IMG/VR virus record: IMGVR_UViG_3300044825_000303
Span: 1 to 25,880 of that record
Strand: one strand, 5' to 3'
DNA from: a virus
Length of the DNA: 25,880 nt
In this document: positions 5,148-23,694 of the stretch, piece by piece
Layout: every line of letters starts with the position of its first letter
How positions within the stretch are numbered: position 1 is the first letter of the stretch
Position numbers and translations under genes: made by a program
Notes under the pieces: generated by a model
The model's database searches: none
What the model was told of the DNA's origin: nothing
Seen by the model: only the letters and a program-made list of their open reading frames with translations

Positions 5148-7972
5148 TATCCACCAAATCCTTTACCGAAGAAGCCACCACCCGCCGCCGCGCCTGCCGC
5201 ACCAGCAAGGCTACCGTACAGCCCCATGCGGGCGTTGTATGCGCCAACTTGGTTTTGGTAGTTCTGTTGCGCGAAATTGCCCGCCGCCTGCGTAGCGCCG
5301 AAGATGGGAGCCGCCCCAACCTCTGCGCCCTGATAGGCTTGGAACTGCGGCATCTGCACTTGCGCGCCACCCATGATGGCGGCAATCTCGTTAAGCGGCT
5401 GCGAGCGCAACGCCAACTGTTCTTGTATCGCCGCCTGTCGCTGCGCGTTAAGGAAGTTCGCCGCTGCTTGCGCTTGGTTGAACCCTTGCGCTTGGAGAGC
5501 CGCTTGCGCCTGCGCCTGCTGCAACGCCGCCTGTTGGTTCTGCGCGAGGGCGGCATTGTAAAGCCCCGCGATGTCCATGTTCTGCCCGAACTGCTGTGCC
5601 GCAGCCGTGTTGTACGCACCCGCCGCGCCGATACCCTGTTGGAAGTTCTGCGCGATGGCACGGTTAACGGCTTCCTGCGCTGCCTGTCCAGTCTGGAACG
5701 AGGCCATTTGCGCCTCGCGCCCGAATTCACCCGCCGCAAGCCGCTGCGCGAACTGCTGCGCCTGTGCTTGGTTGGCAAACTGACCCGACTGAAGCGCAAT
5801 CTGCGCGTTTTGGGCGATAGCAGCGTTCTGCGCTTGTTGCGCCTGCTGACCCATCTCAAATTGCTGACCCGTCAGCGCAGCACCAACCTGCGTTCCCGTA
5901 ACAGCCTGACCAAACCGCTGCGCTTGCGCGGCCCGTGCAGCCTCGTCAACCGCCATGGCTTGCTGGAAGTTCTGCGCCATCGCTGCGTTTTGTGCTTGTT
6001 GTGCCTGTTGCGCCGTCTGGAACGCTGCTAACTGACCCTGCCGCCCAAACTCACCCGATGCCAACCGCTGCTGGAAGTTCTGCGCTTGCGCTTGATTCGC
6101 CATCGCCTGCGCGGCCTGCGCTTGACCGAAGTTTTGCCCGATGGCCTGATTGCCCGCCGCTTGACTCTGAAGGGCCGCTTGGAACGCCGCCAACTGCGCC
6201 TCGTTGCCGAACTGCCCCGCCTGCGCCCGCTGCCCGAAAGCCTGCTGCTGCGCTTGGTTCTCCGCAGCCTGACGCGCCAAAGCGTTCTGGAAGTTCTGCT
6301 GCGCTGCCGCGTTCTGCGCTGCCGTGGCCTGTTGCCCCGCGCCAAAGCCCGCCAGAGCCGCTTGGTTAGCAAAGCCACCCAATGCCTGTGCCTCGCCTAG
6401 CCCCTGCTGACGAGCCGCCATATCGAGGCTCAAGCCCTGTAGCGCGGCTTGCGTCCGCAGGTCGTTTTCGCGTTGCGCCTGCTCTTGAACAGCGGCGTTG
6501 TACGCCTCGCCGCCGCGCACCAGACCCTGATTGGCGAGTTGGGTCTCCAATTGCGCCCGCTGACGCTGCAACTGCGGCTCAAGGCGCGACATGATGGCTT
6601 GCTGCGCCGTCATACCCGCGTTAACGGGCATCGCGGCGAGTTGTGAGGTGTCCAACTGGCCTTGAAGTGTCGGGGCGGCAGGGCCACCCTGCATCGCCGC
6701 AGCAGCCTCCGGCGCACGGGCCACATCGCCCACGCCTGTTAGGTCGTACTGACCGCGAAGCGACGGCGCGCTTACGCCGCCTTGCGCTGCGCCGAACGCA
6801 CCGCCGCCCGGCCCACCGCCCGCCATGCCAAGACCGGAGGTGTCGAGCGTGGATGCGCCGATGCCCGAAGGCCCGCCTTGCGCCATCCCAAACTGCCCCG
6901 GCGTAACATTGACTTGCGCTCCGCCGACACCAGACAGGTTTAACCCTTGCAGCGTTCCCGCCGCTGGGCCACCCTGCGCCGTGCCGAACTGGCCCACCCC
7001 CGTCTGCACAGGGGCAAGGCCGGAGGTGTCCAAACCGCCGAACTGCACGCCAGCGGGGCCACCCGCAGCCATGCCGTACTGCCCCGCCGTGGGGCCGAAG
7101 TTGACCGGGAGCGCGGATACATCAGCCCTTGCTTCACCGCGCAACTCGGGAAGGGTCGGCAGGTTGCCGTAGCCGCCAAAGTTGAACTGCTGCGCGGGTA
7201 TGCCTTGCGGGGTGAAGTTCGTGGCGTAAATGTCCGACACGCGCCCGATGGCTTGTTCGCCAAGACCGGACAGCGCACGCTCAACGCGCTGCTGCGCCTC
7301 AAGGGTCGCCTGCGCCTCGGGGGTGAGATATTGCTCAATCGTTGGGGTGTCCAAGTCCACCATCTCGGTGAACATTTCGCGCGTGGGCATTACATCGCCC
7401 ATGTACCCGCCGCCATAGCCCTGCGCTGCACGGTTTGCCGCTCCCGGCCCCATGCCAGACGCATCAATGCGGTTGCCGCCGATAAGCATAGCGGTCGGAA
7501 CCTGCGCGCCTGACGGCAGCGTGGTGAAGTCAGCGCGGTTCTGCGTGTACTCGCGGCCATCGTCCAGCCCCAACGCTTCGCGCCGACCAACGGGCATACC
7601 ACCTTGCTTCATGTCGCCGTACAAACCTTCGCCAACGCGCGCGGTTTCGTCACCCGTCGTGGGCTGGAACGCGCCACCGCCCGTATCAATCGGAGCGCTT
7701 TGGGGCGGCGTTCCGGTCGGCGGTGCGCCCGTGGGAGGTGCGCCGGGAGCCTGCGGGTTACGCGCACGCCAGTCTGCCATCGCGGCGTTGTAGGCGTTCA
7801 TGTTGAACTGCGGGCGACCGAAGGTCACGCGCTGCCCGCCAAGCGGGGTGATGACATTGGGGTTCGACAGCCGCGCCGTGAGCCGCGCTGCCTCTAGGTT
7901 GGCGATGCCCTGCTGCTGTGCCGCACCCGCGTAGTCAGGTGCTGGCGGCGGTGCTGGTGATTTTTTGCCCAT
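5147..7972 (-). CDS. Large repetitive internal virion / DNA-transfer-like protein (941 aa)
   Basis: Starts MGKKSPAPPPAPDYAGAA, an N-terminus I recognise from podovirus internal or tail-tip proteins. Residues 30-60 include LSNPNVITPLGGQRVTFG. Residues 70-100 are Pro/Gly linkers. Residues 297-450 are Gly-rich imperfect repeats of 30-33 residues built on Q-[YF]-G-x-A-x-G-G-P and LDTSG. Residues 461-530 are a charged helical segment (RLEPQLQRQRAQLETQLANQ). Residues 525-794 are five Ala/Gln-rich copies with an exact 54-residue period. The C-terminus (LNEIAAIMGGAQVQMPQF, then a Gly/Ala tail with GGGFFGKGFGG) is typical of this protein type. It overlaps the acetyltransferase gene by 38 bp. Most likely a virion protein spanning or exiting the tail, but a structural fibre is also possible. 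Confidence 0.65.
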   Translation of the reverse strand: MGKKSPAPPPAPDYAGAAQQQGIANLEAARLTARLSNPNVITPLGGQRVTFGRPQFNMNAYNAAMADWRARNPQAPGAPPTGAPPTGTPPQSAPIDTGGGAFQPTTGDETARVGEGLYGDMKQGGMPVGRREALGLDDGREYTQNRADFTTLPSGAQVPTAMLIGGNRIDASGMGPGAANRAAQGYGGGYMGDVMPTREMFTEMVDLDTPTIEQYLTPEAQATLEAQQRVERALSGLGEQAIGRVSDIYATNFTPQGIPAQQFNFGGYGNLPTLPELRGEARADVSALPVNFGPTAGQYGMAAGGPAGVQFGGLDTSGLAPVQTGVGQFGTAQGGPAAGTLQGLNLSGVGGAQVNVTPGQFGMAQGGPSGIGASTLDTSGLGMAGGGPGGGAFGAAQGGVSAPSLRGQYDLTGVGDVARAPEAAAAMQGGPAAPTLQGQLDTSQLAAMPVNAGMTAQQAIMSRLEPQLQRQRAQLETQLANQGLVRGGEAYNAAVQEQAQRENDLRTQAALQGLSLDMAARQQGLGEAQALGGFANQAALAGFGAGQQATAAQNAAAQQNFQNALARQAAENQAQQQAFGQRAQAGQFGNEAQLAAFQAALQSQAAGNQAIGQNFGQAQAAQAMANQAQAQNFQQRLASGEFGRQGQLAAFQTAQQAQQAQNAAMAQNFQQAMAVDEAARAAQAQRFGQAVTGTQVGAALTGQQFEMGQQAQQAQNAAIAQNAQIALQSGQFANQAQAQQFAQRLAAGEFGREAQMASFQTGQAAQEAVNRAIAQNFQQGIGAAGAYNTAAAQQFGQNMDIAGLYNAALAQNQQAALQQAQAQAALQAQGFNQAQAAANFLNAQRQAAIQEQLALRSQPLNEIAAIMGGAQVQMPQFQAYQGAEVGAAPIFGATQAAGNFAQQNYQNQVGAYNARMGLYGSLAGAAGAAAGGGFFGKGFGG
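5591..6400 (-). repeat. Five tandem 162-bp (54-aa) repeats in the virion protein gene
   Basis: Codons 525-794 of the 941-residue protein. Aligning phenylalanines 543, 597, 651, 705 and 759, and positions 525, 579, 633, 687 and 741, shows an exact 54-residue spacing with no insertions. The consensus around the first set is F-Q-x-x-x-x-x-Q-x-A-x-N-x-A-x-x-Q-N-F-Q. Around the second it is F-G-Q-R-x-A-x-G-x-F-G-x-x-A-Q. A sixth degenerate copy starts at F795. Confidence 0.8.
6625..7084 (-). repeat. Imperfect Gly-rich repeats (30-33 aa) in the same gene
   Basis: Codons 297-450. Aromatic-Gly units (QYG, QFG, QFG, AFG) occur at residues 299, 329, 361 and 393. Each is followed by an A-x-G-G-P/V step, then LDTSG, LNLSG, LDTSG or YDLTG. 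The spacing varies (30, 32, 32), unlike the exact 54-residue array that follows. Confidence 0.7.
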
Positions 7973-8378
7973 AACGGTGTCCTAAAAAACGACACGCATC
8001 GCGTGTCATGGTCAGGAAAACAACATCACCGTCGGTGTCGGCGTCTTTGATTCGCGCTTCCTCGGTGAAACCCATTTTACGCACAAGCGACAACGCTTTC
8101 GCGTTCTTGCTTCCCACAGGGGCGATGATTTTGTCAACCCCACAGACATTGAACGGATAGTCGAAAATGGCGGCGATGTAAGCCGGGGTTAAGCGGTCAA
8201 GGAACGCGATGTGGCAGACGATGCTGCGCCCGTTCCAGTTCTCGTAGACCACGCCGCAGACCAACTCATCGCCCTTACGCAGCCCGATGGCGTTGGAGCG
8301 TTCAGCGTGATACCCGCCGCCCGTGATGTCGCATACCCATTCGCCCACATCGGGGCCGCTTGTTATATGCCAGCCCAT
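7935..8378 (-). CDS. GNAT-family N-acetyltransferase-like protein
   Basis: A 147-residue protein. Residues 37-45 (DELVCGVVY) and 52-60 fit the central GNAT strands. Residues 83-108 contain IIAPVGSKNAKALSLVRKMG, in which N92-A-K-A-x-x-L-x-x-K-x-G-F is the usual final helix and strand that close the acetyl-CoA site. The family transfers an acetyl group from acetyl-CoA to an amine; the substrate is unknown. The gene overlaps the nozzle gene by 16 bp and the next gene by 38 bp, so it is embedded in the tail module. I recall GNAT-like proteins at similar places in other short-tailed phages. The Q/R-x-x-G-x-G/A pyrophosphate loop is poorly conserved, so catalytic activity is uncertain. Confidence 0.7.
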   Translation of the reverse strand: MGWHITSGPDVGEWVCDITGGGYHAERSNAIGLRKGDELVCGVVYENWNGRSIVCHIAFLDRLTPAYIAAIFDYPFNVCGVDKIIAPVGSKNAKALSLVRKMGFTEEARIKDADTDGDVVFLTMTRDACRFLGHRYGQKITSTAAST

Positions 8379-19719: not shown

Positions 19720-20021
19720 TTGCTGAACAGGCCGACCGCCAGCACGGCAGCGCCCGCCCCCGTCGTCACTTTCCACGGGCCGGTGGCCGCGTTGAGGTTG
19801 AGTTCAAGGCTGTAAACGCCGACTGGCGTGTTAGCCGGGATGTCCAGCACGGTCGTGCTGCCGTCAATGATGCTGACGGTGGACGATGCCGTAGCCGACA
19901 CCGTGACGATGATGCGGTGCAAGTAGTCGTTCACCGCGCCGTTGGTGCCAAGCACTTGCGCCGTCTGTCCAGCCGCCACCGTCTCGTAGGGATACTGATA
20001 CGGAAGATTAACGCCACTCAT
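19716..20021 (-). CDS. Small beta-rich protein between terminase and portal
   Basis: A 101-residue protein: PYQYPYETVAAGQTAQVLGT, DYLHRIIVTVSATASSTVSI, then strands ending AAVLAVGLFSK. It is a small beta-sandwich-like protein with no catalytic motif. ATG 20021 sits in an ATGA overlap with the terminase stop. Proteins with the same outline occur at this position in related phages; a minor head or decoration role is inferred from size and context only. Confidence 0.6.
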   Translation of the reverse strand: MSGVNLPYQYPYETVAAGQTAQVLGTNGAVNDYLHRIIVTVSATASSTVSIIDGSTTVLDIPANTPVGVYSLELNLNAATGPWKVTTGAGAAVLAVGLFSK

Positions 20022-21430
20022 ATGCGCGCCCTCCTAGAGACGCTTCGGTCGTGTACTTGCCACATATCGTTGAGCGTGACCTGATTTTGCGGCCCAACGA
20101 TAAGCACCTTGCTCTCCAGCGGCTTCTGCGCGGCAGGCTCCTGCCGCCACGCAACCGCCAACATTCGGAAAGCGTCAGCAGGGTGCGATGTCCAGTCATG
20201 TCGGGGTGATGCCCTAAACGCTTTCTTGTCCTCATCATACTCTCGTTGGTATTGGCGTAAAGCCTCTACCCCATCGCCGCAGCGCACGGAGTTGAACCAT
20301 GTGCGCGGGAGCATCTGACGCACCGCTTGGATGCCGTCCTGCAACCCGATGTTCGGCACCACGGATAAGTGACCGATGCCGAGGTGGTCGGCCAACTGCT
20401 CAACGATGCTGCGCCCCGTCTGAAGCGACTTCGCGCGCGCGTCATGCGGCAGATAGTGCTTACCGTAACGGTAACCTTTGTTAACGACCACTTCGGCGAT
20501 AGCGCGAATGTCTGCGCCCGAGACGGCGTAGAAGTCGATGCAGCGCACTTCGCCGCCCACGACCTGATACCACCAGATAGCGGTGTCATCGCGGTAGCCC
20601 AAGTCCCACGCGGTGTAGACGGGGAATTCGGGGTCATAGACCACGCGCTCGTTGATGCGCGGCTCTGCGAGACGCAGTTCCGTGCCGTAGAACGCCCCGA
20701 GAATCGCCGCCTCGAAACTGCACTCGTACTCTTGGAGGTACTGGTCCTCACTCAACTGCGCCTTTGCTGCGTTGAGTTCACTCTGCGGCAATAGGCCCGA
20801 CTCGCTCGCCGGGAGGCGCAGGACAAACCACTCGTCGGGGATGCGCCGAGCCGTCTCGTAGATGTCCCAAAACTGGTTCTTGCCCTTTGGGGTTCCGGCG
20901 AACACCGCCCAGCCCTGTTTATCGGAGAGCGCGGGGCGTATCACATTGCCGAACACCGAGGGCTTGAAGTCCCCGTACTCGTCAAGGTAAATGCCGCTGA
21001 AGCCGAGGCCACGCATGGCGTCTGCGTTGTCTGCGCCGAAGAGGCTGACCTTCGCCCCGTTAACAAGCGTGATGGTCATCATCTGCTCGTTGATGTCGCT
21101 AACGAGCGGTTGGGCGTAGTACTTGAAGTAGTCCCACGCGATGCGGCGGGCTTGGTTCTGATACGGCGCGACATACCCGAACAGGCCATTCGCCCCCCTG
21201 TACATCACCGCTGCCCTGATGATGTCGTTGACGGCGGCTACGGTCTTGCCAGCGCGACGGTGGGCGACGAGACAGGCCCACCGCTTCGTGCGGTCGTGGA
21301 ACGGCAGGAAGGCACTGCGCGGGCTATAGGGCAGGCAGATGTCAGCCAACCGGATTGCCCCACCGTATGACCATCTGCTGCTCTTTGCCGTCTGGCCCGC
21401 TGTGTTCGTGTCTGGCGAGTTTCGGCACAT
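20018..21430 (-). CDS. terL: Terminase large subunit
   Basis: DNA-packaging motor and nuclease. Walker A: AHRRAGKT (residues 56-63 of the longest frame). Walker B: GIYLDEY (146-152) with D150 and E151. Coupling motif: AGTPKG (178-183). Nuclease acidic residues: D276 in AWDLGYRDD, D330 in PHDAR and D419 in HPADAFR, the RNase H-like triad. The longest frame starts at ATG 21430, which overlaps the small terminase gene by 89 bp and has no good ribosome-binding site. Its first 27 residues look like shadow sequence. A TTG at 21349, eight bases after GGTGGGG and close to the upstream stop, would give a 443-residue protein starting just before LPYSPRSAFLPF and is a strong alternative. Confidence 0.92.
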   Translation of the reverse strand: MCRNSPDTNTAGQTAKSSRWSYGGAIRLADICLPYSPRSAFLPFHDRTKRWACLVAHRRAGKTVAAVNDIIRAAVMYRGANGLFGYVAPYQNQARRIAWDYFKYYAQPLVSDINEQMMTITLVNGAKVSLFGADNADAMRGLGFSGIYLDEYGDFKPSVFGNVIRPALSDKQGWAVFAGTPKGKNQFWDIYETARRIPDEWFVLRLPASESGLLPQSELNAAKAQLSEDQYLQEYECSFEAAILGAFYGTELRLAEPRINERVVYDPEFPVYTAWDLGYRDDTAIWWYQVVGGEVRCIDFYAVSGADIRAIAEVVVNKGYRYGKHYLPHDARAKSLQTGRSIVEQLADHLGIGHLSVVPNIGLQDGIQAVRQMLPRTWFNSVRCGDGVEALRQYQREYDEDKKAFRASPRHDWTSHPADAFRMLAVAWRQEPAAQKPLESKVLIVGPQNQVTLNDMWQVHDRSVSRRARI

Positions 21431-21641
21431 GGTATTCGAGCAGGTCGCTGAAGCACTTAAACGCCGCCTCTGCGCCCTTCTCGGCGTGTATCTCGTCCAG
21501 CCAACCCTGCAATCGACCTGCGTTGCCGTCTACGAATCGCGCTATGGCCTCTCTCGCCAGTTGCGTTGACTCGTTAGGCACACCCTTCGGTCTGCCGGGG
21601 CCACCTTTCTTGCCTTTTTTAAAAGAACCTGTGTTAACCAT
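21342..21641 (-). CDS. terS: Probable terminase small subunit
   Basis: A 99-residue protein upstream of and overlapping the large terminase. Residues 7-20 are KKGKKGGPGRPKGV-like with an AT-hook-like GRPKG, followed by helices (AREAIARFVDGNAGRLQGWL, AAFKCFSDLLEYHVPKL). The layout of a basic GRPKG head, helical middle and short acidic/Gln tail is common in small terminase candidates and helper proteins. It would recognise the packaging site and load the large subunit. A 51-base gap separates it from the upstream gene; the ribosome-binding site is weak (GGTAAA). Position and motif carry the call, since small terminases diverge strongly. Confidence 0.7.
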   Translation of the reverse strand: MVNTGSFKKGKKGGPGRPKGVPNESTQLAREAIARFVDGNAGRLQGWLDEIHAEKGAEAAFKCFSDLLEYHVPKLARHEHSGPDGKEQQMVIRWGNPVG

Positions 21642-21692: not shown

Positions 21693-22727
21693 TTACCGCC
21701 ATCTGATTTCAGGCAACGACTCTTGTGGGTGATAACCCCACTCCAACATGGAGTCTCCAGAAGTCCAAATATCGCTTGCTTTCACCGTGCTTTTGACAAT
21801 TTTAAAATTGTTGTTTAACGCGTTTTGTCCATGTTCTTTTGCGTAAGCGCGGCTTGTCGTTACCCAATCGCCGGGGTTGATTTTTCCTTCCGCATCTTTT
21901 TCGACGGCTCGATACACCGTTACGGTAGCGTTTGGCCTGCCTGCTAAACGGCTCAAGGTTGAATAGGCGTCAGAGTCCAAAGCATCGTAACCGGTTCCAT
22001 AATATCGAAGCCCGTTCACCCCATAAAAATCATCGGGGTAAGTGCCATTCATCGTCACATCAAATGCCGGTGAACCGGAGTTAGGGCCAGCAGGAGTGTG
22101 CGCCCCGCCGCGCTCAAACGACCAATCCTTATATTCCACCCCTCGTTCTTTATGCAGATTCTTTAAAGCGGTGCGGCCTACTGCCGTTTTGCGTTCAGTA
22201 AATGACATTAAAGGACTGCTTGGCATTTCGGTCGGAGGCAATTCCAACGCCTGTGCAATATCCTCGTTTTCGGGTTTTACCTTCGTGCTGGTGTCAACGA
22301 CATCCCCCATTTGCGCCATCGGCCCACGGCGCAGCGCAGCGGCAAGGCGCAGCGGGTTGACGAACTCACCCGCGTACTGCCCCATCGCTCGGGGGCTTTC
22401 CATCGCACCACGCGCCCGCTCAATCTCACCGCGTACAACGGCCTTGCCCGTCTCTACGGGCTGCGTGAGGACAGCCCTACCCAACTCCACGGCTCCACGC
22501 CCCATCGCGTCTAGGCGCGGCGTAGGGCGGTCTGCGGCTTGGGAGAACTCGGCGGTGGTCATGCGCCCGATGTTGGGGTCGCTCGTCAAGGCTTCGTAAG
22601 CGAGTCCACCGACATCCCGTGCGCGGTCTGAAAGGGTATCGACCACCCCACCGCCAAACTCGGCGGCACGGTCGCGCATCTGCTGAAGGTACTGGAGCGC
22701 GGCAGCAATCCGTGACGGCTTCGCCAT
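21693..22727 (-). CDS. Two-part protein with C-terminal ADP-ribosyltransferase-like domain
   Basis: A 344-residue protein. Residues 1-140 are helical, Ala/Arg-rich (AALQYLQQMRDRAAEFGGGV, MGRGAVELGRAVLTQPVETG) and resemble internal virion proteins. Residues 205-344 resemble phage ADP-ribosyltransferase (ART-PolyVal-type) domains: AHTPAGPNSGSPAFDVTM, GTYPDDFYG, R273 in VTVYRAV, S292 in WVTTSRAYAKEHG and E329 in GDSMLEWGY, a candidate R-S-E NAD-binding set. If active it would move ADP-ribose from NAD+ to a host target. The C-terminal half is more AT-rich than the N-terminal half, suggesting mosaic origin. It lies two bases after the Dps-like gene and just before the small terminase. Activity and target are inferred, not shown. 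Confidence 0.65.
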   Translation of the reverse strand: MAKPSRIAAALQYLQQMRDRAAEFGGGVVDTLSDRARDVGGLAYEALTSDPNIGRMTTAEFSQAADRPTPRLDAMGRGAVELGRAVLTQPVETGKAVVRGEIERARGAMESPRAMGQYAGEFVNPLRLAAALRRGPMAQMGDVVDTSTKVKPENEDIAQALELPPTEMPSSPLMSFTERKTAVGRTALKNLHKERGVEYKDWSFERGGAHTPAGPNSGSPAFDVTMNGTYPDDFYGVNGLRYYGTGYDALDSDAYSTLSRLAGRPNATVTVYRAVEKDAEGKINPGDWVTTSRAYAKEHGQNALNNNFKIVKSTVKASDIWTSGDSMLEWGYHPQESLPEIRWR

Positions 22728-22729
22728 AG

Positions 22730-23110
22730 TTAACTTAAGTTCTCCAACTTGTACTTGAGGCTCGTCACCGCATCGACCACGGCGTCGAACAGGTTAACGA
22801 GGTCGCTGTCCTTCGGGAGCGCGGGCTTGATTTCGTCGAGGAAGGTCAGCAGCCCTCTGACATACGCCTTCGGGTCGCGGTTCTTGTGGAACTCAACATC
22901 GTAGCCCGTGATGATGCCGTAGCGGCCTTGATACGCCTCGGCGTATGCGTCTACGAGGTCGGGGATGGCATCGTAATACTCGCCCAACGCCTGATGGGCG
23001 GCATAGGACTTCGTGGCAAGGTGCTGGAGGTGCGTGACGGTCGCGCTGTGCAGCATCGTTCCGACAAACAACGCGGCGTTTTTTTCGTGCGAAGCCATAG
23101 CGTCCCCCAT
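22730..23110 (-). CDS. Dps/ferritin-like helical phage protein (DUF5856-type)
   Basis: A 126-residue, all-helical protein: FVGTMLHSATVTHLQHLATK, SYAAHQALGEYYDAIPDLVD, AYAEAYQGRYGIITGY, and a C-terminal helix (LVNLFDAVVDAVTSLKYKLE). The H-x-x-HL-x-T-x-SYA-x-H-x-AL-x-x-YYD core matches my recollection of DUF5856 and the Dps-like four-helix bundle. Whether it binds iron or DNA is unknown. Two starts are possible: ATG 23110 with no good site, or ATG 23098 (MASHEKN) preceded closely by GGGGGA. It is followed after two bases by the ADP-ribosyltransferase-like gene. Confidence 0.7.
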   Translation of the reverse strand: MGDAMASHEKNAALFVGTMLHSATVTHLQHLATKSYAAHQALGEYYDAIPDLVDAYAEAYQGRYGIITGYDVEFHKNRDPKAYVRGLLTFLDEIKPALPKDSDLVNLFDAVVDAVTSLKYKLENLS

Positions 23111-23134: not shown

Positions 23135-23302
23135 TCACGGGCGCGTTGCAAGCCTCTCTAGCGCAAGCCAGACCACGCGAGGCACAGGGTGTCCCGCGCA
23201 GTATCGGCGCACCGTGCGCTCGTTGATTTCAAGCGCACGCGCTGCACCTCGCTGTGTGAGTCCAGCGAGGGCGAGCGCGGCACGGAAGGCGGTGGCGGTC
23301 AT
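23135..23302 (-). CDS. 55-residue helix-turn-helix DNA-binding protein
   Basis: A short frame found by translating the apparent gap. It starts at ATG 23300-23302, inside an ATGA overlap with the upstream gene, and stops at TGA 23135-23137. The protein reads MTATAFRAALALAGLTQRGA, then ARALEINERTVRRYCAGHP, then VPRVVWLALERLATRP. Residues 12-38 fit an XRE-type helix-turn-helix (LTQRGAARALEINERTVRRY): two helices with a recognition helix carrying T-V-R-R-Y. The closing LALERLA helix is also typical of small phage regulators. It could control the promoter about 830 bases upstream (24131-24166), but that link is inference. Confidence 0.8.
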   Translation of the reverse strand: MTATAFRAALALAGLTQRGAARALEINERTVRRYCAGHPVPRVVWLALERLATRP

Positions 23303-23694
23303 GCGGCTCCTTGCACCACCGCGATTGCGCGGGTGACGGTGGTCACGCCGTCTTCGCCCCGCGTCTCGTAAATGTCGTAGTGGACGGTGTCGGTGTCAGT
23401 CATTAAGTCCCACTCGTCGCGGGACACCCTGCCGACGCACACGGGGGTGGTGTACCACCGACCCGTCTCGGGGTCAGCCATGATTACATCGACCTCGTAG
23501 GTGGGGCCGACACTCGGGGTCGTGACACAGTCCACGATGGACAGCAATTCCATCCAGAGGCTGTCAGACACATCGCGGGTGTCCACAAAATCGAGCGCAG
23601 TCAGAATCTGGCGCATCACGCGACCGTCGTGGTCGGTGGCGATGTCGCCCATCAACTGGGCGATTTGGTCGTCGGTCGCGTTGGAAATGTTCAT
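23299..23694 (-). CDS. Acidic hypothetical protein (131 aa)
   Basis: Unrecognised. It is acidic, with an N-terminal helical half (NATDDQIAQLMGDIATDHDG, QILTALDFVDTRDVSDSLWM) and a beta-rich C-terminal half (YEVDVIMADPETGRWYTTPV, VHYDIYETRGEDGVTTVTRA). No membrane segment or catalytic motif. It starts after the leader CCACAGACAGGAGATACGAC, nearly the same as that of the next upstream gene, and overlaps the helix-turn-helix gene by four bases. Its small size and position after the promoter suggest an early accessory role. Confidence 0.65.
   Translation of the reverse strand: MNISNATDDQIAQLMGDIATDHDGRVMRQILTALDFVDTRDVSDSLWMELLSIVDCVTTPSVGPTYEVDVIMADPETGRWYTTPVCVGRVSRDEWDLMTDTDTVHYDIYETRGEDGVTTVTRAIAVVQGAA

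What the first reader, a model, noticed from the sequence alone, without database searches (positions are those of the whole stretch)
21693..22727. ADP-ribosyltransferase-like domain on a virion-like protein next to the terminase
Seen: a helical N-terminal half like an internal virion protein, then a C-terminal domain with R273, S292 and E329 in the order and context of ADP-ribosyltransferases, and the GTYPDDFYG segment I recall from phage ART-PolyVal proteins. Known: T4 injects ART proteins (Alt) that modify host RNA polymerase. Inference: this phage may package and inject an NAD-dependent effector that modifies a host target at the onset of infection.
Basis: partly seen in the sequence, partly recalled or inferred. 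Interest (0 to 1): 0.62.

Follow-up and report, generated by a model that had tools for sequence, protein, structure and literature searches.

The report
Swappable cargo protein beside phage terminase
Closely related freshwater phages keep one gene beside their DNA-packaging genes that always begins with the same short protein tag but ends in one of about eight unrelated domains, probably proteins carried in the virus particle and injected into the bacterium; in this phage the end looks like an ADP-ribosyltransferase, though that fold is not proven.

Summary
The 344-aa ORF is real (minus strand, 22727-21693). Its C-terminal domain (209-338) belongs to a widespread phage family, phrog_2579 (E 9e-31). 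R273 and E329 are invariant in about 70 aligned relatives. S292 is not: the conserved hydroxyl is T290. AlphaFold models the domain confidently (pLDDT 91-98). No PDB match is significant, but the best is an ADP-ribosyltransferase (E 0.097), and ten of 43 weak hits are ART-superfamily chains. No ART Pfam family matches. ART is plausible, not proven.

The larger finding is the locus. In relatives whose terminase is 75-94% identical, this gene keeps an N-terminal tag (R-x-AAAL-x-Y) and often a 140-aa helical module, while its C-terminus is replaced by at least seven other domain types. DNA is 93% identical upstream and 97% downstream of the exchanged segment in one pair. In a sample chosen by terminase alone, 32 of 38 loci have a tagged gene. 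This resembles T4 internal proteins (shared capsid-targeting peptide, unrelated bodies), MuF toxins and polyvalent proteins. Virion packaging and injection are inferred, not shown.

The parts
21693..22727 (-). Cargo/effector gene, 344 aa (protein P0001)
   Evidence: dN/dS 0.20 over the whole gene against L003
22653..22727 (-). N-terminal tag, codons 1-25 (MAKPSRIAAALQYLQQMRDRAAEFG), candidate virion-loading signal
   Evidence: R-x-AAAL-x-Y motif 6-14 residues from the start codon in 79 distinct proteins with at least 8 unrelated C-terminal types. The set was collected with this motif, so its invariance is by construction; the terminase-chosen sample of 32/38 is not biased that way.
22308..22727 (-). 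N-terminal helical module, codons 1-140
   Evidence: Mostly 63-81% identical in about 60 viral loci that carry other C-terminal domains; modelled helices 6-142 at low confidence
22104..22307 (-). Linker, codons 141-208, predicted disordered
   Evidence: pLDDT below 50 over most of 139-207
21714..22103 (-). ART-like domain, codons 209-338 (phrog_2579 C-terminal type)
   Evidence: phrog_2579 E 9e-31; pLDDT 91-98; fold search
22098..22100 (-). H210 codon, invariant 71/71
21909..21911 (-). R273 codon, invariant 71/71, in predicted strand 268-276
21858..21860 (-). T290 codon, T or S in 70/71; the conserved hydroxyl, in place of S292
21741..21743 (-). E329 codon, invariant 70/70; immediately precedes predicted strand 330-332
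22730..23110 (-). Upstream neighbour, DUF5856 / phrog_858; left flank of the variable locus in most sister phages
   Evidence: Pfam E 2e-19; synteny
21342..21641 (-). Downstream neighbour, terminase small-subunit-like; right flank of the variable locus
   Evidence: Weak phrog_15261 (unknown function) and DUF5681 hits, phrog_18735 terminase small subunit only at E 0.34, and position before the large subunit; synteny
20018..21430 (-). Terminase large subunit
   Evidence: phrog_2 E 6.7e-41; Terminase_6N E 2.6e-9

Best explanation
The gene is one allele of an exchangeable-cargo locus of a probably short-tailed phage. SHOWN: a short N-terminal tag, often with a 140-residue helical module, is kept while the C-terminal enzyme-like domain is swapped by recombination among close relatives, with the flanking DUF5856 and terminase genes left in place. 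INFERRED: the tag loads the protein into the virion, as the capsid-targeting sequence does for T4 internal proteins; the protein is ejected with the DNA; and the C-terminal domain acts on a host target early in infection, to counter defence or take over the host. For this allele the domain is inferred to be an NAD+-dependent ADP-ribosyltransferase (or NAD+-cleaving) domain using R273, T290 and E329, possibly with H210. The host target is unknown.
For: Swap: L035 and L051 share 93.4% DNA identity upstream, 91.3% over a stretch covering about the first 410 bp of the gene, no detectable similarity to its end, then 97.2% over 1610 bp of terminase genes; L037 and L071 share only 55 bp near the start of the gene and then 97.6% downstream. 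Window against L003: synonymous difference 0.55 in codons 1-140, 0.59-0.66 in portal and TerS, but 0.22 in codons 141-344 (P 7e-8), so the linker-ART segment moved recently; in L003/L004 the gene sits between g19716 and portal instead. Tag: 32 of 38 terminase-chosen loci; some phages carry two tagged genes (L043, L065, L253, L261). Cargo kinds: LPD23 (E ~1e-12), ART-PolyVal (weak in most, 5.8e-10 in L261), weak ParB. Virion link: L005, L077 in a structural gene cluster, L079 with the same order before terminase and portal. ART. No immunity-like gene follows the window gene (gap 51 bp) and few alleles have an ORF of 50 aa or more there.
Against: No direct evidence of packaging or injection. The ART fold match is not significant. 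The residue two before E329 is hydrophobic, not the E/Q of the E-x-E/Q-x-E motif, and S292 is not conserved. No Pfam ART model hits any of 76 relatives convincingly. Relatives also sit in non-virion contexts, such as between regA-like and DNA polymerase genes of a T4-like Vibrio phage (L078), so the domain need not be injected. The first locus search used a tag peptide among its patterns, so that set is biased towards the tag.
Confidence: 0.5

Rival explanations
1. Swappable virion-delivered cargo, but the C-terminal domain is not an ADP-ribosyltransferase; it is another enzyme or binding fold that happens to show R, T and E in ART-like order.
For: No significant PDB fold match (best E 0.097), low TM-scores (about 0.3) and high rmsd; no Pfam ART hit; hhalign to T4 ModA/ModB probability 6%; the domain ends soon after E329, without the later strands usual in ARTs.
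Against: Invariant R, near-invariant YR and WV[TS], and invariant E in ART order with strand-helix-strand spacing; 10 of 43 weak fold hits are ART-superfamily chains of seven different proteins, more than their share of the PDB would suggest (my estimate, under 1%).
Confidence: 0.25
2. The protein acts inside the producing cell (superinfection exclusion, late host takeover or anti-defence) and is not packaged; its place beside terminase reflects a recombination hot spot or accessory-gene site.
For: Accessory-gene behaviour: near-empty sites (L263), other genes in the slot such as a ParB-methyltransferase (L244), a second insertion site before portal; some relatives are free-standing in replication regions (L078).
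Against: A short protein-level tag is kept across unrelated cargoes even in diverged phages (L260, L269, L274), which a plain hot spot does not explain; fusion to a virion structural protein (L005).
Confidence: 0.19
3. It is a structural or ejection protein whose C-terminal domain serves assembly or DNA ejection, with no host target.
For: Position between structural genes; Gly/Ala-rich helical N-terminal half.
Against: Exchange for unrelated enzyme-like domains and occasional absence do not fit an assembly role; invariant polar residues suggest an active site.
Confidence: 0.06

Closest known systems
T4 internal proteins Ip1-Ip3 (PMC3012670, PMC12373910)
   Same: A conserved short N-terminal peptide on unrelated, variable bodies; several per phage possible; non-essential.
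   Different: T4 bodies are small binding inhibitors; here most recognisable bodies resemble enzymes. Tag sequence and phage type differ; packaging is proven only for T4.
MuF polymorphic toxins (PMC5576092)
   Same: N-terminal half constant, C-terminal half variable, gene beside portal/terminase, ART among the C-termini.
   Different: No MuF domain found here; no small ORF after most alleles, whereas 89% of MuF toxins have one; lifestyle of this phage not determined.
Phage polyvalent proteins (PMC5512222)
   Same: C-terminal domains drawn from the same pool: LPD23, ART-PolyVal, RadC neighbours, ParB; predicted to be injected.
   Different: The window protein has one effector-like domain, not many; the H-Y-D ART clade described there is not this domain.
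T4 Alt / ModA / ModB ADP-ribosyltransferases
   Same: Proposed chemistry and, for Alt, delivery with the DNA; R aligned with the ModA arginine.
   Different: No significant sequence similarity.
phrog_2579 ('ParB C-terminal domain')
   Same: Same domain, E 9e-31.
   Different: The family name reflects the annotation of other members; no ParB domain was found in the window protein.

Membership tests
ADP-ribosyltransferase superfamily (R-S-E type) | Arginine on the first core strand | tested here: met
   R273 71/71, in strand 268-276
ADP-ribosyltransferase superfamily (R-S-E type) | S-T-S-type hydroxyl motif on the second strand | tested here: inconclusive
   W-V-[T/S]: T290 T/S in 70/71; S292 S in only 22/71
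ADP-ribosyltransferase superfamily (R-S-E type) | Catalytic glutamate | tested here: met
   E329 70/70; conservation only, catalysis not tested
ADP-ribosyltransferase superfamily (R-S-E type) | E/Q two residues before the catalytic E | tested here: not met
   Position 327 is mostly I, L, M or W
ADP-ribosyltransferase superfamily (R-S-E type) | ART fold | tested here: inconclusive
   Top PDB hit an ART at E 0.097; no hit at E 0.001
ADP-ribosyltransferase superfamily (R-S-E type) | R, S/T and E in one pocket; NAD+ turnover | not testable with these tools
   Model coordinates are not released; activity needs an assay
Pfam ART-PolyVal (PF18760) | Profile match | tested here: not met
   No hit to the window domain
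MuF polymorphic toxins | N-terminal MuF domain | tested here: not met
   No MuF hit
MuF polymorphic toxins | Variable C-terminal domain on a constant N-terminus | tested here: met
MuF polymorphic toxins | Small immunity-like ORF directly downstream | tested here: not met
   51 bp gap in the window; few alleles have an ORF of 50 aa or more
T4 internal-protein type (tag plus cargo) | Short conserved N-terminal peptide on unrelated bodies | tested here: met
T4 internal-protein type (tag plus cargo) | Packaging in the head and injection | not testable with these tools
   Needs virion proteomics and a transfer assay
Polyvalent proteins | Two or more functionally different domains in one polypeptide | tested here: not met
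   One effector-like domain in the window protein; relatives L005, L024 and L036 do have two or more (the L024 ParB match is weak)

The most novel reading that the evidence does not exclude
The 20-25-residue R-x-AAAL-x-Y peptide is a virion-loading signal of this podovirus-like group. It makes the gene a general delivery slot through which phages exchange whole enzymes acting on the host at the onset of infection, a counterpart of the T4 internal-protein system that arose separately, with enzyme-like rather than inhibitor cargo.
Probability: 0.45. Interest if true: 0.75.

Novelty: new variant of a known kind. Interest (0 to 1): 0.6.

Why it matters
If the tag loads the virion, it marks injected proteins by sequence alone in a large group of uncultured phages, and the tagged C-termini are a ready list of candidate host-takeover or anti-defence enzymes. 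It would extend tag-plus-cargo delivery beyond T4-like phages. It would also give a function to phrog_2579 domains, now labelled 'ParB C-terminal domain' or hypothetical.

Tried and rejected
Alignment A1 as a locus query: no stretch conserved enough; closer subsets A2 and A3 were used. PDB sequence searches: nothing significant. Fold search with the full-length model: no significant PDB match, low-confidence helices add noise; repeated with the domain alone. Viral structure library: 15 hits at E 0.001 or better; those recognisable by name are relatives, so it confirms the family, not the fold. Profile comparison with T4 ModA/ModB and with the second ART-like class: weak or nothing. N-terminal module in GenBank phages: no significant match. 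A terminase synonymous figure for L003 was discarded because only 19 codons aligned. 'ParB C-terminal domain' as a function: rejected, no ParB domain here; a literature search for the phrase found nothing. Literature searches for a described tag-and-cargo locus of this kind found no match in the held open-access library; subscription papers were not searched.

Full report
OBSERVATION. The ORF lies on the minus strand, 22727-21693, 344 aa, between a DUF5856 gene and terminase genes. The record is a 25,880-base virus record, 100% identical over the compared genes to a 34,141-base IMG/VR contig. Portal relatives are in Myxococcus phage Mx8 and similar phages at 27-39% identity; the short-tailed morphology is inferred from that.

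C-TERMINAL DOMAIN. Residues 207-337 match the C-terminal end of phrog_2579 at E 9e-31. GenBank phages hold 171 records with a match; IMG/VR has at least 304 relatives of a four-sequence profile. The domain stands alone (149-aa frames), ends small proteins, or lies inside open frames of up to 3,500 aa. Across 71 rows H210, R273, D287, W288 and A296 are invariant; S326, E329 and G331 are invariant in 70 of 70; T290 is T or S in 70 of 71; S292 is variable.

FOLD. The domain is modelled with high confidence (pLDDT 91-98 in the full protein; mean 91.5, pTM 0.85 alone). The strand order, with R in a long strand, T at the end of a short strand, then helix, long strand, short strand and E, is what an R-S-E ART would show (established knowledge of that fold). 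Foldseek gives no significant PDB hit. The best is an ART (Vis) at E 0.097, and ten of 43 hits are ART-superfamily chains; that this is enriched rests on my own estimate of their share of the PDB. I call the ART reading likely but unproven.

SWAPPABLE LOCUS. A search with the whole protein returned 75 loci; most share the N-terminal half and not the C-terminal half. C-terminal types: this ART-like domain; a second ART-like type with YHGTP and NFVVF motifs, matching ART-PolyVal weakly (best 5e-5) and carrying two hypervariable inserts; LPD23 with a weak metallopeptidase match; a 'FEGRPFI' type without a family; a 'VHDYFGH' type matching phrog_3170; a type of about 700 aa without a family; a ParB-like type judged from sequence only (L264); and a clear ART-PolyVal type (E 5.8e-10). 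Gene order around the slot is the same in nearly all loci.

RECOMBINATION. Pairs with different types are 93% and 97% identical on the two sides of the exchanged segment. Between the window and L003 synonymous difference drops from 0.55 to 0.22 at about codon 140 (P 7e-8).

TAG. In diverged phages only the first 20-25 residues are recognisably shared. In loci chosen by the terminase, 32 of 38 with 3 kb upstream carry a tagged gene. The other six are a contig-truncated allele (L243), a ParB-methyltransferase in the slot (L244), two small proteins (L246, L276), a near-empty site (L263) and one with a methyltransferase-like gene and no cargo upstream of TerS (L266). On the minus strand of 1.03 Mb of these loci the motif does not occur, and every plus-strand match lies 6-14 residues from a start codon.

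DELIVERY. Inferred from context: fusion to a virion structural protein, structural-cluster position in other phages, large terminase within three genes in roughly 22 of 52 non-redundant relatives (the sum of two families assumed not to overlap), and the published argument that phage ARTs near packaging genes are packaged (PMC9503650).

PRECEDENT. [quoted passage not shown] PMC12373910). MuF toxins share the constant/variable layout (PMC5576092). Polyvalent proteins share the domain pool (PMC5512222). The idea that an ART beside terminase is injected is therefore not new; the tag-and-swap locus in this phage group is what I could not find described.

Noticed in passing
L006, L009, L011 and other second-type alleles: The YHGTP/NFVVF domain keeps a fixed core but has two hypervariable inserts, and alleles share one insert while differing in the other, as if target-recognition parts are shuffled separately.
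   Followed up: partly
window 23299-23694 (-): Residues 1-51 match phrog_8786, annotated type I-E anti-CRISPR protein, at E 7.7e-6.
   Followed up: no
window 7935-8378 (-): GNAT-like acyltransferase, phrog_4470 E 3.2e-31, among virion genes.
   Followed up: no
L043, L065, L253, L261: Two tagged genes in one phage, including a 142-aa tagged protein in L253.
   Followed up: partly
L246:4512-4877 and L276:5343-5723: Short proteins in the cargo slot share 'IPGEGGIST[IV]RSMGVN' and have a tag-like but non-matching start.
   Followed up: no
L200, L202-L204 (Myroides, Parabacteroides, Bacteroides, Dysgonomonas): Relatives of the domain in bacterial genomes, context not examined.
   Followed up: no
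L080 (Mycobacterium phage Myrna gp78): The N-terminal half also shows YRG, HWTT and DEQE motifs, as if a second ART-like domain precedes this one; no Pfam hit.
   Followed up: partly
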